A stretch of DNA of 64,000 bases, taken from contig NZ_FNCN01000027.1 of NCBI RefSeq assembly GCF_900100605.1, positions 1-64,000 on the forward strand. The letters run 5' to 3'. The position numbers and the translations under genes are program-made. The DNA is from Sinosporangium album. Its GTDB lineage: Bacteria; Actinomycetota; Actinomycetes; Streptosporangiales; Streptosporangiaceae. Every line of letters begins with the position of its first letter. Position 1 is the stretch's first letter. Shown here piece by piece: positions 20,206-52,505 of this stretch. The notes below the pieces were generated by a model, which worked only from the letters and a program-made list of their open reading frames with translations, did no database searches and was not told the DNA's origin.

Positions 20206-22563
20206 ATGGCACAACCAGCGGGTGGGAACCTCGCATCTTCCGCACTTGACCATCGCGCGGCGATGGCCGCGGCCGGAGCGAACGTGGGGAACCTACTCGG
20301 CGCTATCCGGAGCGCCGGACCGCTTCCGGACCTGGGCGGCGCACTCCGGCGCCTGGAGAACGCCGCCGACGAGATCCAGAAGCTCGTGTCGGAGCCCGTA
20401 CGGCTGGCGCTCATCGGCCGGTACAGCTCCGGCAAGTCCCGACTGATAGGCACACTTCTCGGCAACCCCGCGCTGCTGCCCAGCGAGTGGGACCCCACCA
20501 CCGGGAACGTGACAGTGCTCAGGCTTCACGCCTGCGACGCGGTCACGGCCACGAGGAGAGGCACCCAGGTCCACTTCCTCTCGCAGGAGGACCTCACCCG
20601 GTGCATCACGTCCATGGCCAGGTCCATCGCGGCCATGCTCCACGACCTCGGCGCCCCCGCCGGGCTCGACCCGGCCGGGCTGCAAGCCCTCGACCCCACC
20701 GACGTCGACGCGCTGCGCGGGTGGCTGGAACGTGCCTGGCGGCTCAACATCAGCCCCCTGCGCACCCGCGCCGCAGAGTTCTCCCGCCTGCTCGGCGCCT
20801 ACGAGAGCGGACGGGACCTACTCGGCGCGGCCGTCGCCGTGGACGACGCGGTGCTGCGCGAGGTGTCGGCCATCAAGAACCGCGAGCACGTGGAGGAGGC
20901 GGACGACCTGCCCGCGCCGCCGGTGCGTCCGGTGCGGCGGGGGGAGAGGCTGACCGCCCGCACCGCCGAGGCGGTGTTCGACCTGGTCGACCACATCGAG
21001 ATCACGGTCGACGTGCCGCATGGAAGCTGGGGCGCCGAACTGCTGGGCGACGGCGGCCTCATCTACGACTTCCCCGGCGCGGGCAACCACGAGACGGGGA
21101 TGCGGGACCGCTATCTCGCCCGGCGCGACCTGCGCGAGGTGACGGTGTCGCTGGTCGCGATCGACGCGGGCCTTCCCCATGACCACGCCCCCTTCCAGAT
21201 GATCGAGGACTTCTACTCCGGCGGCCAGTCGGGGCAGAACCGGCGCGACCACGGCCGCCTGGCCTGCGGCACCAAGGCCGACCTCATCACCCAGGACGCG
21301 CTGCGGCTCGGCCAGACGGCCCGGCCGCTCACCGCCGCCGCGCTGGAGTCGCAGGCGCCGCAGCTGGCGGCCCTGGTCAACCAGTGCCGCAAGGCCCAGC
21401 CCGGAGGCAGGTCCGGCGAGACGCTCCTGGTCTCGGCGTACTATCACGCCGACCCCGGCGAGGGGTACCGGCTCGACCACATCGCCGACCTGCTCCGCGA
21501 GGACCTGCCGTCCTACGAGGGGCTGGCCGCCGCGCTGGCGGCGCTCGGCGCCGACGGCGGCGTGGCGCGGCTGCGGGAGGCGATCGGCGCGCACGTCACC
21601 GCGCACGGCCTGGCGCTCGCCGCCGAGGCGGTGGGCAAGCAGGTGGCCGCCGCCGCGGTGGCGGCCAAGGATGTGGCGAATCTCCTGGAGAAGGCGGCCG
21701 GCAGCAAGAAGACCTCGCTGAAGGACAAGACGGGTGCCCTGGAGCTGCAGCGGCTCGCGGTGAAGCTGCGCAGTGACTACGGCGCGGTCAAGCAGCTCGT
21801 GGAGGAGGAGCTGTGCGATCTGAACCGCCGCCCGTACGGCGACGGCCGCACCCTCGTCGAGATCACCGAGGCCGCGGTGGCTCGGACCGTGACCGACTGG
21901 ACTGAGTGGGAGCCGCTGTTCTCCGCTGTGCGGGGAGGGGTGATCGTGCCCGAGGAGGCCGGCGACGAGTTGGCCGCGACGACCGAGCCGTTCCGCAAGC
22001 GGTTCCTGGAGACCTACGACGACTTCGACACGGTGATCGATGGGATCGCCCGCGATGTGCTGGAGGCGTGGCGGCGCGAGCAGACCGACCGGATGGCCGA
22101 GGCCCGCACGTGGATCGCGCGGGCCGGGGTGGAGCACCCCGAGCTCGCGAAACCGCTTGCGATGCTGGCGCCGTACGCGGAACTGCCGTGGGTCGCGGAG
22201 ATCGAGCCGGTGACCGTCCATGGCGACGATTCCGAGCCGCAGGAGCGGTTCCCGCTGCGCGAGGACTACATGCTGCCGTGGCACATCGACGCGCAGTTCT
22301 CGCAAGCCAAGACGAAGGCCGCCATGCGCCACCAGATCCATATCCGGCGCATCCACCGTGAGCTGACGTCGGCGCTGGTGGACCTGGCGGCCGACAGGCT
22401 GGCGGACACGCTGCACGCCACCGCCGGCCATGTGAAGGCCGAGTTCGGCCGGCACGGCTTCCCCACACTGGCCGAGCTCCGGGCGGCCTCCAAGGAGGAG
22501 CCCGCCAGCGAACGCCGTTCACCCTATGCCGACCTCATCGACCTGCTGCGGAGCTACGAGTAA
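20206..22563 (+). CDS. Dynamin-like GTPase of a six-gene signalling island
   Basis: A 785-residue large GTPase. The P-loop GRYSSGKS is at about 71-78 inside LALIGRYSSGKSRLIGTLL, a switch-I-like TTGNVT follows, the G3 motif is DFPGAG near 288-293, and G4 is TKAD near 356-359. The 210 residues between G1 and G3 are much longer than in dynamin and contain a helical insertion. The remainder is helical and likely forms the stalk; no membrane segment is obvious. ATG 20206 has GGGAGGAAAG upstream. The Hsp70-like gene begins 2 bases after the stop. The pairing of a GTPase with an Hsp70-fold partner recalls SrfC/SrfB-type loci, but I cannot prove orthology. Confidence 0.8.
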   Translation: MAQPAGGNLASSALDHRAAMAAAGANVGNLLGAIRSAGPLPDLGGALRRLENAADEIQKLVSEPVRLALIGRYSSGKSRLIGTLLGNPALLPSEWDPTTGNVTVLRLHACDAVTATRRGTQVHFLSQEDLTRCITSMARSIAAMLHDLGAPAGLDPAGLQALDPTDVDALRGWLERAWRLNISPLRTRAAEFSRLLGAYESGRDLLGAAVAVDDAVLREVSAIKNREHVEEADDLPAPPVRPVRRGERLTARTAEAVFDLVDHIEITVDVPHGSWGAELLGDGGLIYDFPGAGNHETGMRDRYLARRDLREVTVSLVAIDAGLPHDHAPFQMIEDFYSGGQSGQNRRDHGRLACGTKADLITQDALRLGQTARPLTAAALESQAPQLAALVNQCRKAQPGGRSGETLLVSAYYHADPGEGYRLDHIADLLREDLPSYEGLAAALAALGADGGVARLREAIGAHVTAHGLALAAEAVGKQVAAAAVAAKDVANLLEKAAGSKKTSLKDKTGALELQRLAVKLRSDYGAVKQLVEEELCDLNRRPYGDGRTLVEITEAAVARTVTDWTEWEPLFSAVRGGVIVPEEAGDELAATTEPFRKRFLETYDDFDTVIDGIARDVLEAWRREQTDRMAEARTWIARAGVEHPELAKPLAMLAPYAELPWVAEIEPVTVHGDDSEPQERFPLREDYMLPWHIDAQFSQAKTKAAMRHQIHIRRIHRELTSALVDLAADRLADTLHATAGHVKAEFGRHGFPTLAELRAASKEEPASERRSPYADLIDLLRSYE

Positions 22564-22565
22564 CC

Positions 22566-25500
22566 ATGCCGTTGAGGATCTACCAGGCGGCGCCGAAGGA
22601 CCCCGAGGCCGTCACGAGGGACGCGCACGGCCACGTCACCCTGCGCCCCCGCGACGGACTGTTCGAACTTCCCGCCCTTCTCGCCGTGCCGACGAACGGC
22701 TCCGGCGCGCTGCTGACATGGCTGACGGTCACGGTCGAGGGGGCGTCGACGATGGAGTCCGCCTCGGCCATCCGGTCGGCCGTGGAGCGCGTGGCGCTGC
22801 CCGGCGGCGCCGTTCGCAGTGAAATGCGGCTGCCGGGGGCCGTGCTTCCGGCCGACGACGTCACCGGACCGCACGACCTGCGGCTGCGCTTCACGTTGAC
22901 CTATCAGGACGCGAGCCCGTCGGGCCGCCCGGCCAATCCCGCACAACACTCTGCGAGGACTGACATGTCCGTGCGTTTCTCCCCGGACCCTCTGACGCCG
23001 ACGCCCGCCCCGAACACGACACCGCATCCGGCCCAGCCCGCCCCGACCCCCACCGCTCCCGCCCACAGCCCCGCTCCCACGCACAGCCCGGGCGCGGAAG
23101 CGGTGGAGAACCGCAAACGGCCCGACCCCGCCCACCAGGGATACGTCGCGCTGGACTTCGGGACCAGCCAGTCCACGGTCACCCTGCTCGACCGGTGGCG
23201 CCCCACCCGGTCGGCGTTCCCGCCGTCGCAGACCGAGGTGCTGCGCCGCAAGACGCTGGAGCTGCTGACCCTCCACCCCAAGGGGCTCCCGAAGGGCGGC
23301 GAGGAGGAATGGCAGATCATTCTCGGCGCCCTGGCCGACCGCCTGGAGATCGACAAGACCCCCGACGGGCTGGGGGAGCGGCTCGGCGCCCTGCTGAGAG
23401 GGGAGGAGGGCATCCGAGGCGACAACCTCCACCGCGTGCTGCTCGCCCTGGAAGACCTCTACATCTACTGCGAGGAGGAAGTCCGCGACTGGCTGGCGCT
23501 TCGCCTCTACCGCGCCTATGACGCCGCCTTCGCCGCGCCCGCCCTCGACCGCTGGGACCTGCACCGCGTCGCGCTCGACTCGGCCCGGGGCGGAAAGGAG
23601 CTGTCCAGCAGGGTCGAGGTCAAGCGGAGGCGCCCCCTGGAGGTGCGCGTCGGCGACTCGGTCGTCACCCTCTCGGCCGGAGGGCCCGAGGACGCCGCCG
23701 ACGTGTTCCTCGGGTTGAAGCAGAAGCTCAACGAGTTCGGCGACCAGAGGCTCTCCGACGGCACCGTGGTGTCGGCGCTCGACCTCATCGCCGCCGCGTT
23801 CAAGGACCTCGTCCAGCGCACCGACGACTACATCGGCCGCTCCTCCGACAGGCTCGGCCAAGGCGGCACCGACCAGGTGATCCTGACCTATCCCACGGTG
23901 GCCGGGCCGGGCGTGCGGGCCGGCCTTGAGCGCATCGCCCGAGAGAAACTCGGGGTGTCCGACGTGGAGATGCGTTTCGACGAGGCCGTGGCGGCCTCGT
24001 TCTTCTTCCTGATGCGCGACCTCGGCGGCGACCCGGCCACCGGCATCGAGGCCCTGCGCGCGAGGTCCCGCCATATCGGTGACAACCTCTGGCGGCACAA
24101 CATGCTCGTCGTGGACATCGGCGGCGGCACCACCGACATCGCCCTGCTCGCCCTCAACCTGCGGGAGGAGACGCCCCAACTCCCCGGCGCGAAGCAGGGA
24201 AGCCGGAGGACCGGCCGCTACTGGCGGATCACCCCGACGCTCCTCGGAGCGGGCGGAAACGCCCAGCACGGCGGCGACCACCTGACCCTGGAGGTCTTCC
24301 ACTGGCTGAAGACCGTGCTGGCCGACCGCCTGATGTCGGCCTGGAGCGATCGGCCGACCGTCGCGGCGACCCTGGAAGTGCTGGACGAGCCGTTCGTGGA
24401 CGGCCAGCAGCACTACAGGCCGGGCGCCCTGCTCGACCACGCCGTCAAGCAGGTCGAGGCGACGATGACGCTGGCGTGGCAGTCCGGGCAGGCCGCCGAC
24501 GCCCGCGCCAGGCATCTCCAGGTGGAACGCGTCGTCCCCACCCAGTGGAAGGAGGACCCGCGCAGGCGCGCCCTGTTCGACAGCCTCTGGAAGCTCGCGG
24601 TGAAGACCAAGCACGAGCTCGGACGGCTCATCGCCGAACGCCCCGACCAGGCGTACACCGTCGACGAATCCGACGTCGACGACCTGGTCGTCCTGCTGGA
24701 ACGCATCCACGCCGCCGAGGACGGCGAGGCGCCCCTCGGACCGATCACCCTCGACACCTCGCTGTTCCGGATGCTCGCCGTCAAACACGTCAAGGACGTC
24801 TGCACCCTGGCGACCACCCTGGCGCACGACAGACTCGGCGGGCAGCCGCTCGACCGCCTGATCCTCACCGGCAACGCCACCCGGCTGCCGCTGGTGACCA
24901 GCGTGTTCTCCGACAAGTTCGGACGCGACGCGCAGGACATGCTCGTCATCGCCAGGCTGCCGAAAGAGGTGACGGTCGAGAAGGAGTACGCCAAGCACGC
25001 CACCTCCGTCGGCGCCTGCTTCGCCAAACACCTGCGCGCCTTCGGCCACGACAACCCCGAACACGCCGTCGACGCGCTCATGCGCGGCGACACCATCATC
25101 TACGTGGACGTGGAGAACCTGTTCCTCGATCTGCCGTGCGATTTCAAACTCGTCGGGCAGGGCAAGTCCGAGCAACCGATCATGAGCGCGGGCGACGCCA
25201 TGCACCTGCTCGGCGACGGCCACCACACCCGCATCCGCAGGGACACCGGGGCGCTGACCGAGAGCTACCAGATCCGGCGCGACGAGTCCATTACCTGGGT
25301 CCAGTTCAACTACATCGCGCGCCTGGAGCAGGAACGCGCGGAAGGGCTCGTTCCCGAGGACTGGCGGCACGACCGCTCGGTCTGGGTGGGCAAACTCGGC
25401 GAGGTGCACACCGCGCTGGAGTTCGACGAGCGCCTGATGCCCACACTGCACCTGTGGCGGGGGCCGCGGCCCCACTATGTGATCACCGAGCCTCCCGCGG

Positions 25501-26114
25501 GCCGGCTCGGCGTCCGGCGCCCCCCTTCCCCTCAGGAGCCAGGCCGCAGAACCCTGCTCGACGGACTGCGCGGCCGATCCGGCGGCACCGAGCCCTTCCC
25601 CACGTACGGCACCGCCACGCAGTCGGAACCCGCGGGCGAAGGCAACGTCTTCGACCGGCTCAGGGGCCGCATCGTCGTCAACCGCACGCACGACGCGCAG
25701 AGCGACGGAAGCGCCGTGTTCGAGGAATCCGCCGATGGCCCGTCGCTGTTCGTGGAGACCTTCCACATCCGCGATGGAAAGACCACGACCATCCGCAGAG
25801 GCGCCATCTTCGGTCCGCTCCCCGAACCGGTCAACGGCGCGTGGACCTTCGAATACTGGCCGGACGGATCCTCCGACAACTTCGAGTCGCTCGGCACCGT
25901 CAAACGGCTCACCGCCCAGCGCGGCGTCGCCCACTTCGTCACCCTCGACGACGCCGGGGAGCTCCGCCTGCATCTCGGCGAACCGCCGTACCGCACGGCC
26001 GCGAGCCTGAAAGAGGTCGAGGACGTCCCCGGCACGGTCCGCTCCTACCTGGTGGCCGACCATTCCGACAAGGACTGGCAGGTCAACCGGCACCCGTTCA
26101 GCGGGCTCCAGTGA
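22566..26114 (+). CDS. Large Hsp70/actin-fold ATPase
   Basis: A 1182-residue protein. Residues 1-130 are a beta-rich domain, then a Pro/Thr/Ala linker (about 140-190). The actin-like ATPase follows with phosphate-1 motif VALDFGTSQSTVTLLD near 194, phosphate-2 motif VVDIGGGTTDIALLAL near 515, and the adenosine motif LILTGNATRLPLV near 765. Two inserts relative to DnaK make the ATPase part about 640 residues long. After another Pro-rich linker (about 980-1010), a C-terminal beta domain with FVETFHIRDGKTTTIRRGA ends the protein. There is no DnaK substrate domain, so it is not a normal chaperone. It is coupled to the GTPase upstream (2 bases) and the next gene downstream (GTGA overlap). Confidence 0.82.
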   Translation: MPLRIYQAAPKDPEAVTRDAHGHVTLRPRDGLFELPALLAVPTNGSGALLTWLTVTVEGASTMESASAIRSAVERVALPGGAVRSEMRLPGAVLPADDVTGPHDLRLRFTLTYQDASPSGRPANPAQHSARTDMSVRFSPDPLTPTPAPNTTPHPAQPAPTPTAPAHSPAPTHSPGAEAVENRKRPDPAHQGYVALDFGTSQSTVTLLDRWRPTRSAFPPSQTEVLRRKTLELLTLHPKGLPKGGEEEWQIILGALADRLEIDKTPDGLGERLGALLRGEEGIRGDNLHRVLLALEDLYIYCEEEVRDWLALRLYRAYDAAFAAPALDRWDLHRVALDSARGGKELSSRVEVKRRRPLEVRVGDSVVTLSAGGPEDAADVFLGLKQKLNEFGDQRLSDGTVVSALDLIAAAFKDLVQRTDDYIGRSSDRLGQGGTDQVILTYPTVAGPGVRAGLERIAREKLGVSDVEMRFDEAVAASFFFLMRDLGGDPATGIEALRARSRHIGDNLWRHNMLVVDIGGGTTDIALLALNLREETPQLPGAKQGSRRTGRYWRITPTLLGAGGNAQHGGDHLTLEVFHWLKTVLADRLMSAWSDRPTVAATLEVLDEPFVDGQQHYRPGALLDHAVKQVEATMTLAWQSGQAADARARHLQVERVVPTQWKEDPRRRALFDSLWKLAVKTKHELGRLIAERPDQAYTVDESDVDDLVVLLERIHAAEDGEAPLGPITLDTSLFRMLAVKHVKDVCTLATTLAHDRLGGQPLDRLILTGNATRLPLVTSVFSDKFGRDAQDMLVIARLPKEVTVEKEYAKHATSVGACFAKHLRAFGHDNPEHAVDALMRGDTIIYVDVENLFLDLPCDFKLVGQGKSEQPIMSAGDAMHLLGDGHHTRIRRDTGALTESYQIRRDESITWVQFNYIARLEQERAEGLVPEDWRHDRSVWVGKLGEVHTALEFDERLMPTLHLWRGPRPHYVITEPPAGRLGVRRPPSPQEPGRRTLLDGLRGRSGGTEPFPTYGTATQSEPAGEGNVFDRLRGRIVVNRTHDAQSDGSAVFEESADGPSLFVETFHIRDGKTTTIRRGAIFGPLPEPVNGAWTFEYWPDGSSDNFESLGTVKRLTAQRGVAHFVTLDDAGELRLHLGEPPYRTAASLKEVEDVPGTVRSYLVADHSDKDWQVNRHPFSGLQ

Positions 26115-27265
26115 ACGACCCCCTCGCCGAACTCCTCGGCGTGCCCGGCTCGGAGCTGGCCAGGCGGCTGCGCGCCGGGCTCGAACTGGTCGACGCCGCC
26201 CTGCGCGACGCGAGCACCCGGGACGGCGACCCGGGCGCCGACCTCTACCCCGAGGTCGGCGCCCGCCTGGCCCGCCTGCTGTCCCCCTCCGGCCAATCGC
26301 CGGAGGGGGACACCCCCGCGGGGACCGCGCCAACGCCGGCGGAGGTACGGCACGAGCCCGCGCGGCGGCCCACCCCGCAGCCCGCGCGGGTGGACACCGG
26401 ACCGCGGGCGCAGCCCGCCCCCGCCGCCGACCCCCGCCTCGACCTCATGGAGCGGTTCGCCAAGGCGACCGCCGAGGCGTTCGGCCGCAGGCCCGCCGCC
26501 GCCGGGCCCGGCCCGGCGTGGCAGCGGTTCTGCCTGGACCTGCTCCGCCTCCCCGCCCACGAGGCCAGGCGGTGGCGCGATGAAGCCGTCGGCCTCGACC
26601 CGGGCGACGGCGCTCAATGGGACACCGCGCCGGCACTCGCGGAGCCCGAACCGCTCATCCACCCCTGGCCGGAACAGGGCGTCGTGGGTCTCAAGACGAC
26701 ACGCGGCGCCCACCCGCCGGCCGAGCTGACGACCGCCCTCGGCGAGGCGCCCGGCGCGCCCCGCCTCGCTGTACTCGGCTCGCTGCTGCTCGCGCTCGCC
26801 GCGCGCGACCATGAGCTGTACGACTGGGCGTCGGGGGCGGGCGAGCGGCCGCTGCTGCTGAGCGACCCGCAGACCCGGGACATGCTCCGAAGCCGCCTGC
26901 TGAAACGGCTTGAGGCGTACGGCAGGCCCGGCGTCGCCCCCGAGGCCCGGCTGCTGCGGCTCGTCGAGGTCGACGAACACCTCTGCTCCGTCGTCCACCT
27001 GCCGCTCGCCGCCCAGGAAAGCTGGTGGTCGCGGCTGTGGCAGGCGTCGCGGGCCGAACTCACCGCCATGCGCCGCACGGTGCCGGGCGCCGTCGTGCGC
27101 AGGTTCGACGCGGTCGGCACCCGTATGGATGAGATCGCCGGGTGGACCTCCGGCGACGTGCGCGTCGAAGGCGAGGACGGGCGCGTGCTGCACTGCCTGC
27201 GCGCCTACGCCGAGGCGGGAGGCAAGAAGAAACCCGGCCGTGTCATCTTCGGGGCGCGCTCGTGA
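26111..27265 (+). CDS. Unknown protein linking the ATPase and kinase genes
   Basis: A 384-residue protein I do not recognise. A helical N-terminus (ELLGVPGSELARRLRAGLEL) is followed by a Pro/Ala-rich stretch (about 60-105), then a mixed alpha/beta region with WQRFCLDLLRLPAHEARRW, GVVGLKTTRG, RLAVLGSLLLALAARDHEL and a C-terminal part containing LRLVEVDEHLCSVVHLPL and SWWSRLWQASRAELTAM. There is no signal peptide, membrane segment or catalytic motif. GTG 26111 overlaps the previous stop and its own stop overlaps the next GTG (both GTGA), so it must be made in step with the GTPase, ATPase and kinase. An adaptor is the most I would infer. Confidence 0.75.
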   Translation: MNDPLAELLGVPGSELARRLRAGLELVDAALRDASTRDGDPGADLYPEVGARLARLLSPSGQSPEGDTPAGTAPTPAEVRHEPARRPTPQPARVDTGPRAQPAPAADPRLDLMERFAKATAEAFGRRPAAAGPGPAWQRFCLDLLRLPAHEARRWRDEAVGLDPGDGAQWDTAPALAEPEPLIHPWPEQGVVGLKTTRGAHPPAELTTALGEAPGAPRLAVLGSLLLALAARDHELYDWASGAGERPLLLSDPQTRDMLRSRLLKRLEAYGRPGVAPEARLLRLVEVDEHLCSVVHLPLAAQESWWSRLWQASRAELTAMRRTVPGAVVRRFDAVGTRMDEIAGWTSGDVRVEGEDGRVLHCLRAYAEAGGKKKPGRVIFGARS

Positions 27266-29541
27266 CCGCCCAGACCACCCCTCGGCGCTGGCCGAGGCCC
27301 AAGGACTACCTCGCCGCCGTGTCGCGCTTCGCCGACACCGCCCGCGACCCGGCGCTGCGGGAGGCGGCGCCGGTCCTCCGGGACGGGAGGGCGTGGCCGG
27401 TGACGGGGAGATACGCCTCGGTGTTCGAACTGCGGACGCCGGGCGGCCGGTCGTACGCGATGCGGTGCTTCCACCGCGAACCGCACGGCGTCGCGCCGCG
27501 GCTCGCCGCACTGCGCCAGTGGCAGGCGGTCGAACGGGTGCCCGAACTGGTCTGCCCCCGCTGGTGCGAGCAGGGCATCGAGGTCGAAGGCACGGTATGG
27601 CCGGTGACCGTCATGCCGTGGATCGACGCCCGGCCGCTGGACACCTACATCGAGGACAACCTGGCCGAGCCGCTCCGCCTGAAGGCGGTGGCGGCCCGCT
27701 GGTTCGACCTCGTCGCCCGGATGCGGAGCGCCGACATCGCCCACGGCGACCTCCAGCACGGCAACGTCCTGGTCACGGCCGGGAACGAGCTGCGGCTGGT
27801 GGACCTCGACGGGATCTGGGTGCCAGGCATCGCCGCCGTGCCGCCCGCCGAGATCGGCCTGGCGGGCTACCAGCATCCGAAGCGCACCCGCGACGACTGG
27901 GGGCCGGATATCGACCGGTTCTCGGCGCTCGTCATCCACCTGTCCCTGCTCGCCGTCGCCCACGACCCCGCGCTGTGGAGCGGGGACAACCGGCTGATCC
28001 TCGGCCGCCGCGACTACGCCGACCCGGCGGCCAGCCAGGCCGTCGCCAAGCTCCTCGCCTGCGGCGACCGGGAAGTGGAGCACTACGCGAACGTCCTGGT
28101 GCGGGCGTGCGCCGGGTCCGTCGCCGAGGTGCCGCCCCTGACGGGCCTGCCCCGCGTCGACCTCGCGGGTCTGCGGCGTACGGCGCAGGAAGGCGTCAAG
28201 CAGCTCAAAGCCCTCCACGAGGGCGGCGGGCTCGACGCGGTGCGGGAGGCGGTCACCCGGCTGAGGGAGACAGGGGAGCACCTCGCGAGGAGGACCCTGG
28301 ACACGTCGGCCAGGCTGAGGAGGAGGTGGAGGAGGGGCCCCGGACCGGGCGCGGCGGACGGTTCCGCGCGGGACGGGAAGACCCGACTGTACGACGCGAG
28401 CCGGCTGTACGACGCGAGCTGGCTGACCGAACGCCGGGAAGGCGGGCCGGACGGCTCCGCGCCGGGCACCTCGCAAACCCCGGGACCGCCCCGCCCGCCC
28501 CCGGCGGGCAGGCCGGCCCCGCCCGGGGCCGCAGGGCCGGGCCCGTCCACGGCGGCTGCCGGGCTCAGGGCCGCGTCGTCGGCTCCGGGCACGTCCGCCT
28601 TGAGGCACGGCCCCTCTCCGACGGGCGGCGGTGGGCCGAGCGCGGCGCCGGTCAACACGATGCCGTTGGCCACCGCGACCGCTCCGCCCACCCGCGCCAC
28701 CCCGGGTGGGCGGAGCGGGCGGGGGCGCGGGGCCGGGGTGCGCCCTGCCGTACAGCCTGTGCCGGCGGCGTTCCTGTGGTGGTTGGCGGCCGTCGGGCTG
28801 GTCGAGCCCGTGCTGTGGCAGTGGTCGGCGTTCACGCCGACGCCCGACGCCGGGATGCTGATCACGCACGCCGGGCTGCTCGTCGCCGCGCTGCTCGGCT
28901 GCCTGCTGCCGGGGGCGGCGCGGACGCAGGCCACCGCGTTCGGCGTGGGACTCGCCGCCTCGGGGGCCGCCTTCGCGCTGCCCCCGGCGGGGCGGGCCGC
29001 CTGGGCGTGGTACGAGGGCGGGCAGGTGTCGCCCGCGGTCCTGTCAGCCGCCTTCGTGCCGCTCGTCCTGTGGTCCGGCGCCTACGTCGCCGCCCATGTC
29101 GCGCTGCGGCGGCAGGAGTCGGTCCTCGCCGCCCCGTCCCGCGCCGCCCCCCTCGCCGTCATGAGCACCGCCGTCGCCGGAGGGCTGCTGGTCGCGGTGG
29201 CCGGTTCCACCGTCGACCTGACCGCCGCCGCCGACCTCGGCGGGGTCGCCGCCGGGCTCCTCGGGTTGCCGCTGATCGCCCTCTGCGCCGCGTTCGGGAC
29301 CCGCAGGGTCGCCACCCGCGTCCTGTGGCCTCTCGGGCTCGCCGCCGGAGCCGCCCTGCACGCCATCCAGGTCGACACCCGTGCTCTCGCCGGATTCCTG
29401 CCTTACGCGTGGGGAGAGCTGGTCACCTTGGTCGGCCTGCCGGTCGACCCGTGGCACGGCCTCGTGCCTCTCGTCGCCGGGCTCGCCCTGCTCGTGGTGT
29501 CCACTGTCGCCCTGGCCGTCGCCGCGATGCGTCGGCGCTGA
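27262..29541 (+). CDS. Divergent protein kinase with multi-pass membrane tail
   Basis: A 759-residue protein. The kinase-like domain (about 1-300) has a glycine-loop region VTGRYASVFEL, then SYAMRCFHRE, where the usual ATP-binding Lys is replaced by Arg, a catalytic loop AHGDLQHGNVLV with HGD near 161-163, and a metal-binding LVDLDGIWVP in place of DFG. A basic segment (RLRRRWRRG) and a long Pro/Gly-rich linker (about 355-500) follow. The last 250 residues contain seven or eight hydrophobic helices, for example MLITHAGLLVAALLGCLL. So a cytoplasmic kinase-like head seems tethered to the membrane. Its 3' end converges on the PP2C gene. It may signal to or be reversed by PP2C. Confidence 0.8.
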   Translation: MTAQTTPRRWPRPKDYLAAVSRFADTARDPALREAAPVLRDGRAWPVTGRYASVFELRTPGGRSYAMRCFHREPHGVAPRLAALRQWQAVERVPELVCPRWCEQGIEVEGTVWPVTVMPWIDARPLDTYIEDNLAEPLRLKAVAARWFDLVARMRSADIAHGDLQHGNVLVTAGNELRLVDLDGIWVPGIAAVPPAEIGLAGYQHPKRTRDDWGPDIDRFSALVIHLSLLAVAHDPALWSGDNRLILGRRDYADPAASQAVAKLLACGDREVEHYANVLVRACAGSVAEVPPLTGLPRVDLAGLRRTAQEGVKQLKALHEGGGLDAVREAVTRLRETGEHLARRTLDTSARLRRRWRRGPGPGAADGSARDGKTRLYDASRLYDASWLTERREGGPDGSAPGTSQTPGPPRPPPAGRPAPPGAAGPGPSTAAAGLRAASSAPGTSALRHGPSPTGGGGPSAAPVNTMPLATATAPPTRATPGGRSGRGRGAGVRPAVQPVPAAFLWWLAAVGLVEPVLWQWSAFTPTPDAGMLITHAGLLVAALLGCLLPGAARTQATAFGVGLAASGAAFALPPAGRAAWAWYEGGQVSPAVLSAAFVPLVLWSGAYVAAHVALRRQESVLAAPSRAAPLAVMSTAVAGGLLVAVAGSTVDLTAAADLGGVAAGLLGLPLIALCAAFGTRRVATRVLWPLGLAAGAALHAIQVDTRALAGFLPYAWGELVTLVGLPVDPWHGLVPLVAGLALLVVSTVALAVAAMRRR

Positions 29542-30393
29542 GTCCCTGCCCGATGAGACCCCGCCCGCAGGGCGCCCGGCGGCAGGGCGTCCACCCGGGG
29601 GAACCCTGCGGATCAACGTCAGGTCGTCCGCCGCGATCGCCCCGTCCGCCCGCAGTACGGCGAGGGCCTCCGCCAGCTCGGCGACCGGCAGGGCGCCCCA
29701 CTCCTCCCACACGGGCTCGCCGTGCTCGGCGCGGCGCACGGCGTAGTGGGCCACGGCGTCGGTGGCGAGGAACACCGGGGTGTCGGCCCGGCACACCCCC
29801 TCCGTCACCGCGAATCCCGCGCAGGCCGCCTCCTGGAGCCGGTCGAGGGTCGGCACCAGCGACGTCCGCGGCCCGAACTGCTCGGCACGCGTCAGCGGGA
29901 ACGACACCGGCCGCCCGTCGAGCACGACGAACACGCACGTGTCCCCGAGGGCCGCGGCACGGTAGGCGATCAGGCCGTCCCCGGCGGGGGCCGTCTCCAG
30001 GAGCAGGAGCGTCGCGAAGCTGCCCTCGCCGTCCAGTTTGAGCCGGGCGAACGGCGACGCCGCGCCGGGAAGCGCCGCCGCCCCCGCCAGCCACTCCGCC
30101 GCCGCGTCGGCGATCCAGCGGGCCGGGTCGGCGAGGGGGCTGTGCCGTACGGCATGAGCCGCCAGGACCGCCGCCCACCGCCCCGCGTCGATCGCGCTGC
30201 CGGCGCCGTCGCTCAACGCCACCCGGCTCCCGCCGGAGCCGTCGTCCGACGCGTGGAAGGCGTAGGCGTCGTCGCCGCGCTCCCCGGACTTGGGGACCGA
30301 GAGGGCCTCCCAGCGGAGGCGGGGATCAGACCCACTGCCGGACAGGGCGGGTTCCGAGGTCGAGGAATGCCACAAGCTGGGACTCTTCTGCAT
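29044..30393 (-). CDS. PP2C-type protein phosphatase, 3' end antisense to the kinase
   Basis: The recognisable phosphatase domain covers about residues 25-265: PKSGERGDDAYAF with paired acidic residues, VALSDGAGSAIDAGRWA, GSFATLLLLETA, AALGDTCVFVV, VFLATDAVAHYAV and finally IAADDLTLIRRV near 29605. These are the metal-binding motifs of short PP2C enzymes found in triads with VWA and kinase genes. The frame then stays open for a further 185 residues of low-complexity sequence to 29044, of which 498 bases are antisense to the end of the kinase gene. This tail could be real or due to a lost stop codon. ATG 30393 overlaps the upstream VWA gene by 68 bases; later starts near 30330 are possible. 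Confidence 0.7.
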   Translation of the reverse strand: MQKSPSLWHSSTSEPALSGSGSDPRLRWEALSVPKSGERGDDAYAFHASDDGSGGSRVALSDGAGSAIDAGRWAAVLAAHAVRHSPLADPARWIADAAAEWLAGAAALPGAASPFARLKLDGEGSFATLLLLETAPAGDGLIAYRAAALGDTCVFVVLDGRPVSFPLTRAEQFGPRTSLVPTLDRLQEAACAGFAVTEGVCRADTPVFLATDAVAHYAVRRAEHGEPVWEEWGALPVAELAEALAVLRADGAIAADDLTLIRRVPPGGRPAAGRPAGGVSSGRDSAPTHRGDGQGDSGHHEQGEPGDERHEAVPRVDRQADQGDQLSPRVRQESGESTGVDLDGVQGGSGGEPERPQDAGGDPAGPERGAEGDQRQPEEPGGDPAEVGGGGQVDGGTGHRDQQPSGDGGAHDGEGGGAGRGGEDRLLPPQRDMGGDVGAGPQDERHEGG

Positions 30394-31129
30394 TGAAGGC
30401 GAAACCCCTCGCCTCTGGTTCGATGGGGAAGTCGGCGAGGTCGGCCATCTGCCGGGGGATCGTGCTGGACGCCTCGAACAGCACGCGGGCATTGGGGTCG
30501 ACCACGATCGGGGGTTTCGCCGGGAAGAAGATGGCGTGTCCCTTGATCTCGGACAGGTGGATGTTGAAGAGCAGCACGTTGCCGTCGGTGGTCGACAGGT
30601 TGGTGAGGTGGGCCGCTTGAACGCGGGGGTCGCCGTCGGTGGCGGCGCCGTCGGTGATGTTCAGCACGATGGGCGGCAGGGCGTCCGGGTGGCGGGCGAT
30701 CCACTCGCCCGCCAGTCTGGCCGCCTCGGTGAGCGCGGCGCACATCGCCGTCTTCCCTCCCGCCGCCGGAGTGATCCACCCGAAGGAGGCCGACAGGTCG
30801 CCGCCGTCGCCGGAGCCGCTCGATGGTATGGCTTGCGCCGTACGTTCGAGCTCGGGCACCGAGACGATGGGGTTCGGCGTCAGGAGGCGCACCTCGTCGG
30901 AGTAGCCGATCAGGCTGACGTCGCAGTATTCCCGGGCGGGCCGGTCGATGTCGCGTTTGCAGGCGAGGACCAGCTCCAGGAGGCTGTCGTTGACCACCTT
31001 CGCCAGCGCCTGCGCCTTGCTCCGCTGGGAGAGCCCGGCGAGGGGGCCGGTCATGGAGTAGGAGTGGTCCAGAAGGAAGATGAGATATGCCGGATTTTCC
31101 CGGTTTATCTCTGCGGAATAGGTGCTCAC
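30326..31129 (-). CDS. VWA-domain protein (TerY-like)
   Basis: A 267-residue, essentially single-domain von Willebrand factor A protein. FLLDHSYSMTG contains the MIDAS DxSxS with Asp21, Ser23 and Ser25; further metal-site elements are GGKTAMCAAL and VLNITDGAATDGD. Such TerY-like proteins act as metal-dependent protein-binding hubs, often together with PP2C phosphatases and kinases. The gene overlaps the PP2C gene downstream and follows the HTH gene by 85 bases, all on the minus strand. There is no signal peptide, so it acts in the cytoplasm. The start is GTG 31129. Confidence 0.85.
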   Translation of the reverse strand: MSTYSAEINRENPAYLIFLLDHSYSMTGPLAGLSQRSKAQALAKVVNDSLLELVLACKRDIDRPAREYCDVSLIGYSDEVRLLTPNPIVSVPELERTAQAIPSSGSGDGGDLSASFGWITPAAGGKTAMCAALTEAARLAGEWIARHPDALPPIVLNITDGAATDGDPRVQAAHLTNLSTTDGNVLLFNIHLSEIKGHAIFFPAKPPIVVDPNARVLFEASSTIPRQMADLADFPIEPEARGFAFNAEESQLVAFLDLGTRPVRQWV

Positions 31130-31214
31130 GCCACGTCACACAACCAGCTTCCCCTCCTTCTGACAACCAGGGATTTTAGGGATTTTTCCCTGATGCGCTG
31201 TCCGGGTGATGCGT

Positions 31215-32165
31215 TCAGTTCCACTCCCAGCGGATGCCGTGCACTCCGGCGCGGGATTCGAAATCGAAGATGTGGACCGAGTTCCAGTTGCTGACCCGCA
31301 GCTCCCGGCGGTCGGTGGGCTCGGTCTCGATGTTGGGCTGCCAGATCTGGTAGCAGCGCGCCGGGAGTGCCTGTTCGTCGAAGCGGACCTGCAGCAGGTA
31401 TTCGCGGGTCGGGAAGCGGAACCCCCGGACCCACTGCATGCTGGGAGGTCCGCCGCCCGGGTTGGTGAACGCGTAGTCGATGACGTAGGTCTCGCCCTGC
31501 GCCAGCGGGTGGTCGAAGATCAGCTCCGCCGCTGTCAGGCCCCGCTCCGGGTCCGACCGCACCCGGCCCACCCTGCACAGGTCGCTGGTGACGTCGATGG
31601 GGGCCACGCGCTCCTCGTTGTGGTGGATCGCCACGTAGCGGTCTACGCCGGCCCGCCGCGCCCGGAACACCACGCGCGACCGGGCGGCGAGCTCCTCCCG
31701 GCGCGGCCCCACGAGGTAGGTCTCGTGGTGGCTGAGCGTCTCCAACTGGCCGTCGACCGGGTTGTCGATGTCGTCCAGCAGATCGGACAGGCCGCCGTGG
31801 ACGACGCACACATCCTCATAGGTGAGCGATCCGGGGACGTGCTCCAGCCAGCGGCCCCTCGGGCGGCGGGGGCCGATGAGTGTGACCAGGGAGTCGGGTT
31901 CGAGATCGAGGATCTCCTCCAGCACCCTGACCGCCCGGAGCGAACGCGCCCGCTCCGGACGGCACAGGCCGCGCTGCCAGTAGCTGAGACTCGCCACACT
32001 GACGGGGATGCCGCGCTCGGTGAGCCGGGCGTGGATGCGTTCCAGGCTCAGCCCGCGCGACTGGATCGCCAGTTGAAGTGCCCGATCGAAGGGCCCGCTG
32101 CGCAAGGCGGTGTTCAGCTCGGGGCTGGCCTCCATGGAACCCGACGGGGTGATACGCCGTGACAT
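31215..32165 (-). CDS. HTH protein with C-terminal sensory-like domain
   Basis: A 316-residue protein. Residues about 25-90 form a XRE-like helix-turn-helix: RALQLAIQSRGLSLERIHAR, GIPVSVASLSYWQRGLCRP, VRVLEEILDLEPDSLV. The remaining 220 residues are an alpha/beta domain with DRYVAIHHNEERVAPIDV and FDHPLAQGETYVIDYAF that I know only from actinobacterial hypothetical regulators. ATG 32165 has CAGGAG 8 bases upstream. It reads toward the VWA and PP2C genes, so it may regulate them, but an independent role is equally possible. Upstream (32209-32300) is AT-rich for this genome and probably holds its promoter. Confidence 0.7.
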   Translation of the reverse strand: MSRRITPSGSMEASPELNTALRSGPFDRALQLAIQSRGLSLERIHARLTERGIPVSVASLSYWQRGLCRPERARSLRAVRVLEEILDLEPDSLVTLIGPRRPRGRWLEHVPGSLTYEDVCVVHGGLSDLLDDIDNPVDGQLETLSHHETYLVGPRREELAARSRVVFRARRAGVDRYVAIHHNEERVAPIDVTSDLCRVGRVRSDPERGLTAAELIFDHPLAQGETYVIDYAFTNPGGGPPSMQWVRGFRFPTREYLLQVRFDEQALPARCYQIWQPNIETEPTDRRELRVSNWNSVHIFDFESRAGVHGIRWEWN

Positions 32166-32350
32166 CGCAGGACTCCTGATGACGCCGTAAGCCTTCGGAG
32201 CCCACATCTTGTCGGGGGAGCCCCGCGATGTCTATTGGGGTAGTTAAGTAGTTATAGGACAACTCTATGTAAGCAGGTCGTTATCGCCCTGTTATCGGAA
32301 GCCCGTGCGCATGCGGGAATGTGATGCAGATCACTCTTTCGGGGAGGGGG

Positions 32351-33825: not shown

Positions 33826-34707
33826 ATGACGCTGACGATGCGGCGAACGATGCTCGTTCTCGCGGTCGTCCTCGGTTTCACCGCGCAGGGCGCGGCTCAG
33901 GCCGCCGGACAGACCGCACCTCCTCAGGCGGCGGGCGCCGCTCCGCAGGCCGATCTTCGCGACGACGATGACGGCGACGGCGGCGACAACGACGATGACG
34001 GCGATGATGACGGCGACAGACGCGGAGGTCGGGATGACGACGATGAGCACGACGACCACCGCGTACCGCGCGGCGGTGTGGACACGGGTGCGGGCGGGGC
34101 GTCGGACGACGACGATGACGATGACGATGACGACCGGCGGGTGCCGCGGGGTGGCGTGGACACGGGCGCAGGGGGCATGTCGGACGACGACGATGACGAC
34201 GATGACGATGACGACCGGCGGGTGCCGCGCGGCGGCGTGGACACGGGCGCGGGCGGCATGTGGAACGTTCAGGTGGCCGACCCGGTACGGCTCCGCATCC
34301 CCGCGATCGGTGTGTCCACCAAGATCATCCCGCTGAAGATCGGCTCCTCGGGCCGCCTGGCCGCGCCGAAGAGCTTCACCAAGGCCGGCTGGAACCGGCA
34401 GGGCCCCGAGCCGGGAGAGCGGGGCGCGGCGGTGATCGCCGGGCACGTCGACTCCAAGTCCGGCCCCGCCGTGTTCTACCGGCTGCGCCAGATGCGCGCT
34501 GGTGACAAGGTGCACGTGGACCGTGCCGACGGCACGACCGTCACGTTCCGGGTCACCAAACTGGCACGCTACAACAAGACCCGCGTTCCCTCCCGGGCCG
34601 TCTACGGCTCGACGAAGGACGCCCAGCTCCGCCTCATCACCTGCGGCGGCACCTTCGACCGCAAGCGCGGCAGCTACCGCGACAACCTGGTGGTCTTCGC
34701 CCGCTGA
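33826..34707 (+). CDS. Class F-like sortase with Asp-rich repeats
   Basis: A 293-residue exported protein. The signal peptide (TMRRTMLVLAVVLGFTAQGA) is followed by about 100 residues rich in Asp, including three near-identical units of about 26 residues: an acidic run of 8-11 Asp and then RRVPRGGVDTGAGG. The sortase domain follows, with catalytic His207 (AGHVDS), Cys273 (LITCGGTF) and Arg285 (SYRDNLV). The enzyme lacks a C-terminal anchor and resembles class F sortases of actinobacteria, transpeptidases acting at the wall. The polyacidic arm is unusual and may bind calcium. ATG 33826 has CGGGAG upstream; a terminator hairpin follows. Confidence 0.85.
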   Translation: MTLTMRRTMLVLAVVLGFTAQGAAQAAGQTAPPQAAGAAPQADLRDDDDGDGGDNDDDGDDDGDRRGGRDDDDEHDDHRVPRGGVDTGAGGASDDDDDDDDDDRRVPRGGVDTGAGGMSDDDDDDDDDDDRRVPRGGVDTGAGGMWNVQVADPVRLRIPAIGVSTKIIPLKIGSSGRLAAPKSFTKAGWNRQGPEPGERGAAVIAGHVDSKSGPAVFYRLRQMRAGDKVHVDRADGTTVTFRVTKLARYNKTRVPSRAVYGSTKDAQLRLITCGGTFDRKRGSYRDNLVVFAR

Positions 34708-43925: not shown

Positions 43926-45281
43926 ATGCGATTCCTTCCCGACCGGGAGAGCGTCACGGCAGCGGTCATCGGACTCGGCTATGTGGGATCGTGCCTGGCC
44001 GCGGCTCTGGCGGACCGCGGCATGCCGGTGGTCGGCGTGGACACCGACCGCACACTGGTCGAGGAGATGAACCGCGGGCATTGCCGGTTCAAGGAGCCCG
44101 AACTGCCGGAGCTCATCGCGCGGCTGGCGGGCACTCCCGCCCTGCGCGTCACGACGTCCTATGAGGAGGCGGTCGAGGCCGCGGACGTGGTCGTCATCGC
44201 GGTGGGCACGCCCGTACAGGAGGACGGGGCGCTGCTCGACACCCAGCTGCGCGGCGTCTGCGAGGCGCTGAGCGCGTGCCTGCGGCCGGGCCGGCTCGTG
44301 ATCTTCAAAAGCACCGTGCCGCCGGGCACGACCCGGGAGCTGCTCGTCCCGCTGCTCGAACGGGGCGGACTGCGCGCCGGCGTCGACTTCGGTGTGGCGT
44401 TCTGCCCAGAGAGGCTGTCCGAGGGGGTGGCGCTGAGCGAGCTGCGGCGCTTCCCGGTGGTCATCGGCGGCTGGGACGCCAACAGCACTGCGGCGGCGGC
44501 CGTGTTCTGGGAGGACGGGCTGGGCGTGGAGGTCGTGCCCTGCACCTCGCCGGAGGTCGCCGAGATGGTCAAACTGGCCAACAACTGGTGGGTCGACCAC
44601 AACATCGCGATGGCCAACGAGCTGGCGCTGGTGTGCGGGGCGGTCGACGTGGACGTGCTCGAAGTGATCGCCGCGGCGAACTCCATCGACAAGGGCAACG
44701 GCAACATCAACATCCTGACGCCCAGTGTGGGTGTGGGAGGGTCGTGCCTGACCAAGGACCCGTGGATGATCGTCCACTCCGCCCGGGAGCGGGGTGTGGA
44801 GCTGCGTACGGTGCCCGCGGCCAGGAAGGTCAACGACTCGATGCCGCGGCACACCGCGTCGCTGATCGTCGAGGAGCTGGCCAAGCACGGCAAGTCGCCC
44901 GCCGGGGCGAAGGTGGCGGTCCTCGGGCTGGCCTTCAAGAACGACACGGGCGACCTGCGCGCCACGCCGGTGGAGCCGGTGGTGGCGGCGCTGCGCGAGG
45001 CGGGGGCGCGGGTCAGCCTGCACGACCCCCTGGCCGACGCCGACGACGCGCAGAAGACGTTCGGCGCGACCCCCGCCGCCTCGGTGGCCGAGGCGGTGCG
45101 CGACGCCGACTGCCTGGCGCTGCTGGCCTGGCACCGGCCGTTCAAGGAGCTCGACCTGACCGCCTTGAAACCGCTGGTCGCCGACCGGTGCGCGGTGGTG
45201 GACGGGCGGGCCTACCTGTCGAGGGAGCAGATCGACGGGCTGGAACGGGCCGGCTTCTCCTACCGCGGAATCGGCAGGTGA
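43926..45281 (+). CDS. UDP-glucose 6-dehydrogenase-type enzyme
   Basis: A 451-residue NAD-dependent nucleotide-sugar dehydrogenase. The NAD site is GLGYVG at 16-21, followed by STVPPGTT, the substrate helix MVKLANNWWVDHN, and the catalytic Cys274 in GVGGSCLTKDPW. The LTKD after the Cys differs from the FPKD of housekeeping enzymes and recalls those of secondary-metabolite clusters such as CalS8. It should make UDP-glucuronate from UDP-glucose with two NAD. ATG 43926 has GGAG 7 bases upstream; an in-frame ATG 43908 lacks this. The next gene overlaps its stop (GTGA), a probable UDP-glucuronate-processing SDR. Confidence 0.85.
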   Translation: MRFLPDRESVTAAVIGLGYVGSCLAAALADRGMPVVGVDTDRTLVEEMNRGHCRFKEPELPELIARLAGTPALRVTTSYEEAVEAADVVVIAVGTPVQEDGALLDTQLRGVCEALSACLRPGRLVIFKSTVPPGTTRELLVPLLERGGLRAGVDFGVAFCPERLSEGVALSELRRFPVVIGGWDANSTAAAAVFWEDGLGVEVVPCTSPEVAEMVKLANNWWVDHNIAMANELALVCGAVDVDVLEVIAAANSIDKGNGNINILTPSVGVGGSCLTKDPWMIVHSARERGVELRTVPAARKVNDSMPRHTASLIVEELAKHGKSPAGAKVAVLGLAFKNDTGDLRATPVEPVVAALREAGARVSLHDPLADADDAQKTFGATPAASVAEAVRDADCLALLAWHRPFKELDLTALKPLVADRCAVVDGRAYLSREQIDGLERAGFSYRGIGR

Positions 45282-46363
45282 CCGGCATGGGAGCGGACAG
45301 GGCAGCGGACAGGGCAGCGGGCACGGCAGCGGACAGGGCAGCGGGCACGGCAGCGGACAGGGCAGCGGGCAGGGGGACCGGCGCCGCCCGCGTCGTCGTC
45401 ACCGGCGGATCCGGATTCGTCGGCCGCCATCTCGCCCGCGCCCTCGCGGAGCGGGGCGACGAGGTCACCGTCTTCGACATCAGCCCGCCGCATCCCTCGG
45501 GCATCGCCGACGGCGTCAGGTATGTGACCGGCGACGTCCGCGACATCGACGCCCTGAGCACGGTGATCGACGGCGGCATCGACGTCGTCTACCACCTCGC
45601 GGCCGTCGTGGGCGTGGACCTCTACCTGGCACGGCCGCTCGACGTGGTCGACATCAACCTCATCGGGACCAGGCACGTACTCGAACTGGCCGAACGCGCC
45701 AGCGCCAAGGTGATCTTCACCAGCACCAGCGAGGTGTTCGGCAAGAACCCCGGCGTGCCCTGGAGCGAGGACGCCGACCGGCTGCTCGGCAGCACCGCCA
45801 CCGACCGCTGGAGCTACGCCACCAGCAAGGCGCTGGCCGAACACCTCATCTTCGCCTTCGCCCGGCAGCGCGGTCTGCGGGCGTCCATCATCCGCTACTT
45901 CAACCTGTACGGCCCCGGCCAGCGTCCCGCCTTCCTCGTCAGCAGGAGCATCCACCGCGCTCTGCGGGGCGTGCCGCCGGTGGTCTACGACGACGGCGGC
46001 CAGACGCGCAGCTTCACCTACATCGACGACGCCGTCTCGGCCACCCTGGCGATCGCGGATGCCGCCGCGGCCGAAGGGGAGTCCTTCAACGTGGGCTGCT
46101 CGGACGAGATGTCGATCGGCCACGCGGTCAAGCTCATCGTCGAGCTGACGGGCTGCGCCCTTGAGGTGGTGCCGGTCGACACCCGGCGCCGGTTCGGCGA
46201 CACCTACCAGGACCTCAGCCGCCGCATCCCGGACACCACCAAGGTCCGCACGCTGCTCGGCTGGCAGAGCACGGTCCCGCTGCACGACGGGCTCGCGGCG
46301 ACCATCGAGTGGGCGCGGGCCAACCCGTGGTGGCTGGAGCAGCCCGACACGGCCTTCGCGTGA
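45278..46363 (+). CDS. NAD-dependent epimerase/dehydratase, probable UDP-glucuronate decarboxylase
   Basis: A 361-residue extended SDR. After an unusual 33-residue N-terminal repeat (ADRAAGTA units), the NAD site VVTGGSGFVGRH begins at about 37. The catalytic pair is Tyr180 and Lys184 in WSYATSKAL, and the sugar-binding RYFNLYGPGQRP follows. TSEVFGKNP with the RWSYATSK region resembles pentose-pathway enzymes of CalS9 type, so UDP-glucuronate to UDP-xylose (via the 4-keto pentose) is the best guess; a 4-epimerase is possible. GTG 45278 overlaps the upstream stop; ATG 45287 is the alternative. Confidence 0.75.
   Translation: MTGMGADRAADRAAGTAADRAAGTAADRAAGRGTGAARVVVTGGSGFVGRHLARALAERGDEVTVFDISPPHPSGIADGVRYVTGDVRDIDALSTVIDGGIDVVYHLAAVVGVDLYLARPLDVVDINLIGTRHVLELAERASAKVIFTSTSEVFGKNPGVPWSEDADRLLGSTATDRWSYATSKALAEHLIFAFARQRGLRASIIRYFNLYGPGQRPAFLVSRSIHRALRGVPPVVYDDGGQTRSFTYIDDAVSATLAIADAAAAEGESFNVGCSDEMSIGHAVKLIVELTGCALEVVPVDTRRRFGDTYQDLSRRIPDTTKVRTLLGWQSTVPLHDGLAATIEWARANPWWLEQPDTAFA
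45290..45380 (+). repeat. Tandem repeat at the 5' end of the SDR gene
   Basis: Imperfect 12- and 24-base units, GCGGACAGGGCA alternating with GCGGGCACGGCA, encode ADRAAGTA repeats. They precede the Rossmann fold and are absent in normal family members. Confidence 0.85.
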
Positions 46364-46470
46364 CGGGGACTTCTCGTGACCGGGCCTTCTCGCGACGCCG
46401 CGCGGCGACGAGTCCCGCCGGCGAGACGCCAACCCTCTTCCCAATGATCAACAGGTGCTGAGGAGACCAC

Positions 46471-47697: not shown

Positions 47698-47721
47698 GGG
47701 CGGGTGCCCGGGCCGGAGCGG

Positions 47722-48990: not shown

Positions 48991-49001
48991 TGCGGCGGTC
49001 C

Positions 49002-51613: not shown

Positions 51614-51677
51614 GACTCTCCTCCACGCGCCTTAGGCACCATCCTCCCGGAGGTTAACGAGCGCGCATTGCCCCACC

Positions 51678-51697
51678 AACCCCTAATCGGCCCCCTG
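51678..51697 (-). promoter_or_regulatory. TAGGGG direct-repeat motif, copy 2
   Basis: On the minus strand CAGGGG is followed 12 bases later by TAGGGGTT, the same spacing as copy 1. It lies 65 bases before the glycosyltransferase 2 start and in the divergent region shared with the LmbU-type regulator. Confidence 0.4.
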
Positions 51698-51822
51698 GGA
51701 AAGCCTGTGCGGCGCGTCTAGACGCCGTCTAGAACGTGTCGGGACCCGCCATCGCTCTCCGGGACAGAATCGCTGCGTATCCAGGTCAAGCCGCGGACGG
51801 GGAACGGGGTCGAGTGCTGCAT

Positions 51823-52491: not shown

Positions 52492-52505
52492 CGAGAGCCG
52501 CCTTC

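What the first reader, a model, noticed from the sequence alone, without database searches (positions are those of the whole stretch)
20206..32165. Dynamin-like GTPase + giant Hsp70-fold ATPase + membrane kinase + PP2C + VWA island
Seen: four plus-strand genes (20206-29541) are separated by 2 bases or overlap as GTGA and encode a large GTPase (GRYSSGKS, DFPG, TKAD), a 1182-aa actin/Hsp70-fold ATPase with extra N- and C-terminal domains, an unknown protein and a divergent kinase with 7-8 membrane helices. They converge on a PP2C phosphatase and a VWA MIDAS protein on the other strand, with an HTH gene upstream of those. Known: kinase-PP2C-VWA trios are described as TerY-P phosphorylation triads in stress and biological-conflict systems, and GTPase/Hsp70-like pairs occur in SrfB/SrfC-type loci. 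Inference: a single machine in which kinase and phosphatase set the state of the Hsp70-like ATPase or GTPase at the membrane, perhaps surveillance against phage or envelope damage. The combination of all six is not one I know as a named system.
Basis: partly seen in the sequence, partly recalled or inferred. Interest (0 to 1): 0.85.

Follow-up and report, generated by a model that had tools for sequence, protein, structure and literature searches.

The report
GTPase–ATPase trio plus TerY-P-like triad
Six neighbouring genes in a soil actinomycete turn out to be two separately inherited sets, a rare three-gene GTPase/Hsp70-like machine and a kinase–phosphatase switch of a type known from phage defence, with the kinase fitted seamlessly behind the first set in this one species.

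Summary
The genes are real and placed as described. They are not one conserved six-gene system. (1) A dynamin-like GTPase, an SrfB/Hsp70-like ATPase of 1182 aa and an unknown protein form a tight trio, found in the same order in 6 genomes of Actinomycetes (23-32% identity to four of them). (2) Kinase, PP2C and VWA are a TerY-P-like triad, found without the trio at 10 actinobacterial loci and on 2 cyanobacterial plasmids. The congener Sinosporangium siamense has the syntenic locus without the triad: 3,947 nt (27268-31214) stand against 4 nt there, between the stop codons of the third gene and the HTH gene. One further genome carries trio and triads on different contigs. So the stated refuting result (separate conservation) is largely obtained, but 'chance adjacency' does not follow: uniquely among 13 triads compared, the kinase is on the other strand from PP2C/VWA, has about six membrane helices (0-2 in the others), and most likely starts inside the trio's last stop codon as a fourth cistron. 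Best reading: a TerY-P-like phospho-switch recruited to a poorly known, SrfB-related GTPase/ATPase machine; function (stress or phage response) is inferred, untested.

The parts
20206..22563 (+). Dynamin-like large GTPase, 785 aa; first gene of the trio
   Evidence: Dynamin_N 1.9e-05, 25.2 bits, below the gathering score of 27; Dynamin_N in 6 of 6 family members at E<=0.01; profile hits bacterial dynamin-like proteins and LeoA by the G domain only; G1-G4 motifs
22566..26114 (+). Actin/Hsp70-fold ATPase, 1182 aa, SrfB-like; ATPase core about residues 190-830, N-terminal beta-rich domain and C-terminal extension
   Evidence: profile hits DnaK/BiP; phosphate and adenosine motifs in the 6 family members; beta-rich N-terminus in an otherwise very weak model
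26111..27265 (+). Unknown third protein of the trio, 384 aa; SWW motif invariant in 6 of 6
   Evidence: no family at E<=1; 6 family members; nothing in the PDB better than E 0.89; poor model
27262..29541 (+). TerY-P-like protein kinase with Pro/Gly-rich linker and about 6 hydrophobic helices (residues about 500-755); fourth cistron, GTG start overlaps the stop of the third gene (27142 and 27319 are other in-frame GTG codons)
   Evidence: (STK_OB 2e-47)
29044..30393 (-). PP2C phosphatase; homology covers about 29565-30393, the open frame continues antisense into the kinase gene
   Evidence: (PP2C 1.1e-16)
30326..31129 (-). TerY-like VWA protein with intact MIDAS, 267 aa
   Evidence: (TerY 2e-55)
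27268..31214 (.). 3,947-nt segment present here, 4 nt in the syntenic locus of Sinosporangium siamense; holds the triad except the first two codons of the kinase, which lie in the shared sequence
   Evidence: (blastn blocks 26733-27267 against L004:15463-15994 and 31215-32236 against L004:15999-17022)
31215..32207 (-). HTH protein next to the trio in both Sinosporangium species (78% identical); regulator or merely a flanking gene (HTH nature judged by eye)
   Evidence: no Pfam, PADLOC or NCBIfam hit at E<=1

Best explanation
Shown: two separately conserved modules have been joined. Module A is a three-gene operon-like set (dynamin-like GTPase, SrfB/Hsp70-like ATPase, unknown protein); in two other genomes a DUF4407 gene (3-4 hydrophobic helices) sits directly upstream of it. 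Module B is a TerY-P-like triad (kinase, PP2C, VWA). In this Sinosporangium the triad lies precisely after the last gene of A, with the kinase turned round relative to PP2C/VWA and placed as the fourth cistron of A. Inferred: A is a membrane-associated NTPase complex whose GTPase acts on or near the membrane, with the ATPase and adaptor gating it. The kinase, anchored by its own helices, phosphorylates a component of A, PP2C reverses this, and the VWA protein (metal-dependent ligand binding) senses or scaffolds, so that the machine stays off until stress or infection. The kinase may supply the membrane anchor that DUF4407 supplies elsewhere.
For: Trio order kept in 6 of 6 genomes where found; both NTPase motif sets largely kept. 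DUF4407 gene next to the trio in 2 of 5 other loci. Triad motifs intact and matching the PADLOC models. Clean presence/absence at a syntenic site. Kinase strand opposite to PP2C/VWA only here: same strand in 10 of 10 actinobacterial loci and 2 of 2 plasmids. 4-nt stop/start overlap. Literature: TerY-P protects PAO1 against Autographiviridae (PMC10889362, passages); TerY-P is an accessory module of CoCoNuT systems (PMC11090510, passages); kinases with ZnR or TM helices + PP2C + vWA are linked to GTPase-centred systems in actinobacteria (PMC7159879, section 29); SrfA, B and C bind each other (PMC6950479, passages).
Against: The combination is seen in one genome only, so selection on it cannot be shown; the congener does without the triad. 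No expression, interaction or phenotype data. The kinase has Arg where the usual strand-3 Lys stands (so do the 8 relatives aligned; the comparable kinases of PMC7159879 are called active there). In L017 two GTPase motifs are altered (GKS reads LKS, G4 is not recognisable). The link of trio to SrfABC rests on a short ATPase stretch. Structure models were too poor to use.
Confidence: 0.55

Rival explanations
1. Passenger model: the triad is an autonomous TerY-P-like defence cassette that landed (or was lost in S. siamense) at this spot and works alone; adjacency to the trio has no functional meaning.
For: Trio and triad each occur without the other at every other locus examined; in G120 both exist on different contigs; TerY-P alone is active in PAO1 (PMC10889362, passages); triads occur on 2 plasmids.
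Against: The likely kinase start lies inside the trio's stop codon, the kinase is reversed relative to PP2C/VWA unlike 12 of 12 other triads, and it has about 6 hydrophobic helices against 0-2 in the 12 others.
Confidence: 0.35
2. Ancestral six-gene system: trio and triad belonged together in the ancestor of Sinosporangium and S. siamense deleted the triad.
For: Presence/absence at one site cannot be polarised with two species.
Against: 4 other trio loci in three other genera lack the triad in their flanks; TGACC from the stop codon on, shared by the two species, is also found in L010 and L016, so it is no deletion scar.
Confidence: 0.1
3. Member of the DO-GTPase/GAP1-N2 'third theme' of Kaur et al. 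2020 (kinase with ZnR or TM helices, PP2C, vWA beside a GTPase and GAP1).
For: Similar triad, same phylum (PMC7159879 section 29).
Against: The GTPase hits Dynamin_N and no DO-GTPase family, and no protein hits a GAP1 family in Pfam at E<=1 (that Pfam holds such models is recalled).
Confidence: 0.05

Closest known systems
TerY-P (TerY, PP2C, STK-OB)
   Same: All three protein types, adjacent, catalytic and MIDAS motifs kept
   Different: Kinase ends in about 6 hydrophobic helices instead of the OB-fold or Zn ribbon described in PMC11090510; kinase on the opposite strand, behind another operon
SrfABC operon (SrfB, SrfC/Virul_Fac)
   Same: A large GTPase and a large actin/Hsp70-fold ATPase plus a third protein; 5 of 6 ATPases hit SrfB, 1 of 6 GTPases hits Virul_Fac at 0.006 (that Virul_Fac is SrfC is recalled)
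   Different: Window ATPase scores 15.4 bits against a cut-off of 27.1; gene order GTPase-ATPase-third; third protein not compared with SrfA
GAP1-N2 GTPase-centred systems, third theme (Kaur 2020, PMC7159879)
   Same: Kinase (often fused to ZnR or TM helices) + PP2C + stand-alone vWA near a GTPase in actinobacteria
   Different: Dynamin-like GTPase and SrfB-like ATPase; no DO-GTPase or GAP1 hit
CoCoNuT types II and III-A (PMC11090510)
   Same: TerY-P triad attached to a GTPase system; Hsp70-like domain in some
   Different: No McrB, McrC or HEPN family hit here
LeoABC / bacterial dynamin-like proteins
   Same: G domain (LeoA 2.3e-06; bacterial dynamin-like protein 2j68)
   Different: Partner genes differ; similarity mostly limited to the G domain

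Membership tests
TerY-P triad | TerY-type VWA with MIDAS | tested here: met
TerY-P triad | PP2C phosphatase with acidic metal motifs | tested here: met
TerY-P triad | Kinase domain of the STK-OB family, catalytic loop kept | tested here: met
   (model positions 9-291 of 562)
TerY-P triad | Kinase C-terminus an OB-fold or Zn ribbon | tested here: not met
   match stops at model position 291 of 562; C-terminus is linker plus hydrophobic helices. Tested by sequence only. Hence filed as TerY-P-like
TerY-P triad | Anti-phage activity | not testable with these tools
   shown for another TerY-P in PMC10889362 (passages)
SrfABC | ATPase in Pfam SrfB above the gathering score | tested here: not met
   window protein 15.4 against 27.1 bits; homologue L010 28.2
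SrfABC | GTPase in Pfam Virul_Fac (SrfC) | tested here: not met
   no hit for the window protein at E<=1; 1 of 6 members at 0.006
SrfABC | SrfA homologue | not tested
   no SrfA sequence was fetched
DO-GTPase/GAP1-N2 system | DO-GTPase and GAP1 proteins | tested here: not met
   no such Pfam hit at E<=1 for any of 7 proteins; that Pfam holds these models is recalled
CoCoNuT | McrB-type AAA+ GTPase and McrC | tested here: not met
   GTPase hits Dynamin_N; no McrBC family hit
Bacterial dynamin-like GTPase | Dynamin-type G domain | tested here: met
   Dynamin_N in 6 of 6 family members at E<=0.01, window member at 25.2 bits just below the gathering score of 27, L010 above it; G1-G4 motifs
Bacterial dynamin-like GTPase | Membrane-remodelling activity | not testable with these tools
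   needs biochemistry

The most novel reading that the evidence does not exclude
The GTPase, SrfB-like ATPase and unknown protein are an undescribed actinobacterial membrane machine with an exchangeable membrane/control partner: DUF4407 in some species, a membrane-anchored TerY-P-like kinase-phosphatase-VWA switch in this one. This would show one NTPase engine acquiring a new phospho-switch in a single, precise genomic step.
Probability: 0.3. Interest if true: 0.7.

Novelty: new variant of a known kind. Interest (0 to 1): 0.5.

Why it matters
It gives a natural with/without pair of syntenic loci (window species and S. siamense) in which the effect of a TerY-P-like switch on an NTPase machine can be tested directly, and it points to a rare, conserved three-gene GTPase/ATPase system for which I found no description in the searches made. 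It also shows how parts of conflict systems can be joined as modules.

Tried and rejected
Rejected: a conserved six-gene system; membership in GAP1-N2 or CoCoNuT systems. No sign of trio mobility: no match of the window GTPase or of three ATPases on plasmids, of the window ATPase in phages, or of the ATPase core in viral contigs (pattern-based); the third protein was not searched there. Led nowhere: AlphaFold models of the third protein (mean pLDDT 44.7) and the ATPase (33.8), each from 2 sequences; the latter's fold comparison bears only on residues 1-143 and gave common beta-sandwich matches, best Z 7.8. The Pfam SrfB genome search rang in 0 of 148 genomes and in 0 of 14 controls, so it shows no absence. 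The genome-contig scan used two patterns of the ATPase and gave one locus. Repeats at the 3.95-kb segment: none of those listed (20 of 33 direct families, 25 of 91 inverted pairs) pairs the two edges. None of the papers listed in searches is about this trio by title or abstract start; beyond listings I saw passages of four papers (PMC11090510, PMC7159879 with its section 29, PMC10889362, PMC6950479).

Limits of counts: one search scored only the best 8 candidates per genome, so 2 of 236 is a lower bound; searches scored at most 15-17. Absence of the other module was tested in the fetched flanks (roughly 4-10 kb to a side), not genome-wide; of the other trio genomes only G120 is known to be covered genome-wide for the VWA. 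The profiles were built from the loci they then found, so those hits are no independent proof; the independent evidence is tblastn. Rows dropped or mended: the L029 kinase was read in a wrong frame (mended: 0 helices), and upstream out-of-frame stretches of several rows carry no meaning; the PP2C pieces of L033 and L034 were left out of the model because of a stop from a gapped alignment. Weak matches against my reading: third protein of L010 in L031 (E 0.007) and GTPase of L010 in L032 (6.6e-04), both short and not upheld by profiles.
Full report
What is there. Seven open frames fit the finding: GTPase 20206-22563, ATPase 22566-26114, unknown 26111-27265, kinase 27262-29541 on the plus strand; PP2C (start about 30393, homology to about 29565, frame open to 29044), VWA 30326-31129 and HTH 31215-32207 on the minus strand. 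The four plus genes are spaced +2, -4 and -4 nt, an operon-like layout.

Families. Kinase, PP2C and VWA match the PADLOC models STK_OB, PP2C and TerY (2e-47, 1.1e-16, 2e-55), which I recall as its TerY-P system. The GTPase matches Dynamin_N and LeoA weakly; its six-member family hits Dynamin_N in 6 of 6 and, as a profile, bacterial dynamin-like proteins in the PDB by the G domain. The ATPase has the actin/Hsp70 motifs; 5 of 6 members hit Pfam SrfB and 4 of 6 HSP70 at E<=0.01, and one homologue, L010, passes both gathering scores; the window's own protein passes neither. The third protein and the HTH protein hit nothing (at E<=1, at E<=0.01).

The congener. Search of 21 genomes found the GTPase in the window's genome and one congener (2 of 21); that contig is Sinosporangium siamense NBRC 109515 by length and place, so the window is a Sinosporangium (Streptosporangiaceae). 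The loci are syntenic on both sides. The congener has GTPase, ATPase and third gene (69, 66 and 67% identical), then the HTH gene (78%), and no kinase, PP2C or VWA in between. The difference is 27268-31214 in the window (3,947 nt) against 4 nt in S. siamense: the triad but for the first two kinase codons, with clean edges.

The trio elsewhere. A GTPase search of 61 genomes of the order gave 3 with a match (own, G044, G060). An ATPase profile search of 118 genomes of the class gave 3 (own, G120, G157), and of 236 genomes of the phylum 2 (own, G157). At all four new loci GTPase, ATPase and third gene stand in the same order. None of the 5 other trio loci holds the triad in the fetched flanks; the one kinase-like hit, in L005 (1.4e-07), lies 7.8 kb from the congener's trio and has no VWA or PP2C hit with it. 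In 2 of 5 a DUF4407 gene is directly upstream of the GTPase, with 3-4 hydrophobic helices. No match was found for the GTPase or three ATPases on plasmids, for the ATPase in phages or its core in viral contigs.

The triad elsewhere. The VWA protein matched in 7 of 148 genomes of the class: own and six of one other family, 10 loci besides the window's. All 10 have VWA, PP2C and kinase on one strand. None holds a trio protein by profile (repeated); two short single-query matches (L031, 0.007; L032, 6.6e-04) were not upheld. Two cyanobacterial plasmids carry the same triad, also on one strand and without trio hits. Genome G120 holds the trio on contig 8 and triads on contigs 7 and 2. In the window alone, out of 13 triads, the kinase is opposite to PP2C/VWA. 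Its membrane part is also unusual: about 6 predicted helices against 0-2 in the 12 others.

Reading. It does not make the junction meaningless: the kinase most likely begins inside the stop codon of the third gene (other in-frame GTG codons lie at 27142, inside the third gene, and 27319, inside the conserved N-terminal motif), so it is probably read with the trio. TerY-P triads are described as attached to various systems (PMC11090510), and kinase, PP2C and vWA genes are linked to GTPase-centred systems in actinobacteria (PMC7159879). I therefore favour recruitment of a TerY-P-like switch by the trio (0.55) over a passenger cassette (0.35). Gain versus loss is not settled; absence from the 4 more distant loci favours gain.

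How it may work (inference). SrfA, B and C of Xenorhabdus form a complex (PMC6950479); by analogy the trio would be a complex of GTPase, ATPase and adaptor. Dynamin-like GTPases usually act on membranes (general knowledge). DUF4407 neighbours, and here the membrane kinase, would place the complex at the membrane. Phosphorylation by the kinase and reversal by PP2C would set its state, with the VWA as metal-dependent sensor or scaffold. A phage-defence role is plausible because a TerY-P system protects PAO1 against Autographiviridae (PMC10889362), but nothing here tests it.

Verdict. An interesting composite, mostly of known kinds. The trio is the less known half: rare, divergent, conserved in order, and without a description in the searches listed under Tried and rejected.

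Noticed in passing
29044-29541: PP2C open frame runs 498 nt antisense to the 3' end of the kinase gene; codon-position GC (GC1 0.91, GC3 0.81) suggests the tail is open by chance.
   Followed up: partly
43926-61100: Probable natural-product cluster: sugar-nucleotide-type genes and several glycosyltransferase-like genes whose products begin alike (functions judged by eye).
   Followed up: no
62628-62715: ARAGORN tRNA-Ala (cgc) lies inside a long called gene 61468-63996, so it may be a false positive.
   Followed up: no
34177-34707: Gene beginning with a run of 11 aspartates, otherwise 81% identical in S. siamense over 165 residues.
   Followed up: no
L016:16085-17842: A second dynamin-like GTPase gene (Dynamin_N 7.6e-12) lies about 2.7 kb downstream of the trio in genome G157.
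   Followed up: partly
L043:2890-5187 and L009: Genome G060 has on another contig a weak ATPase-like (6.6e-06) and a weak GTPase-like match (4.4e-4), perhaps a distant paralogue of the trio.
   Followed up: no
L031, L033, L034: In three triads an extra called gene separates kinase from VWA-PP2C; the one scanned (L033:8910-9854) has no Pfam hit at E<=0.001.
   Followed up: no
L029:1716-7796: A 2026-aa polyketide-synthase-like gene stands next to one TerY-P-like triad; a similar-looking 2288-aa gene stands next to another (L032, by eye).
   Followed up: no
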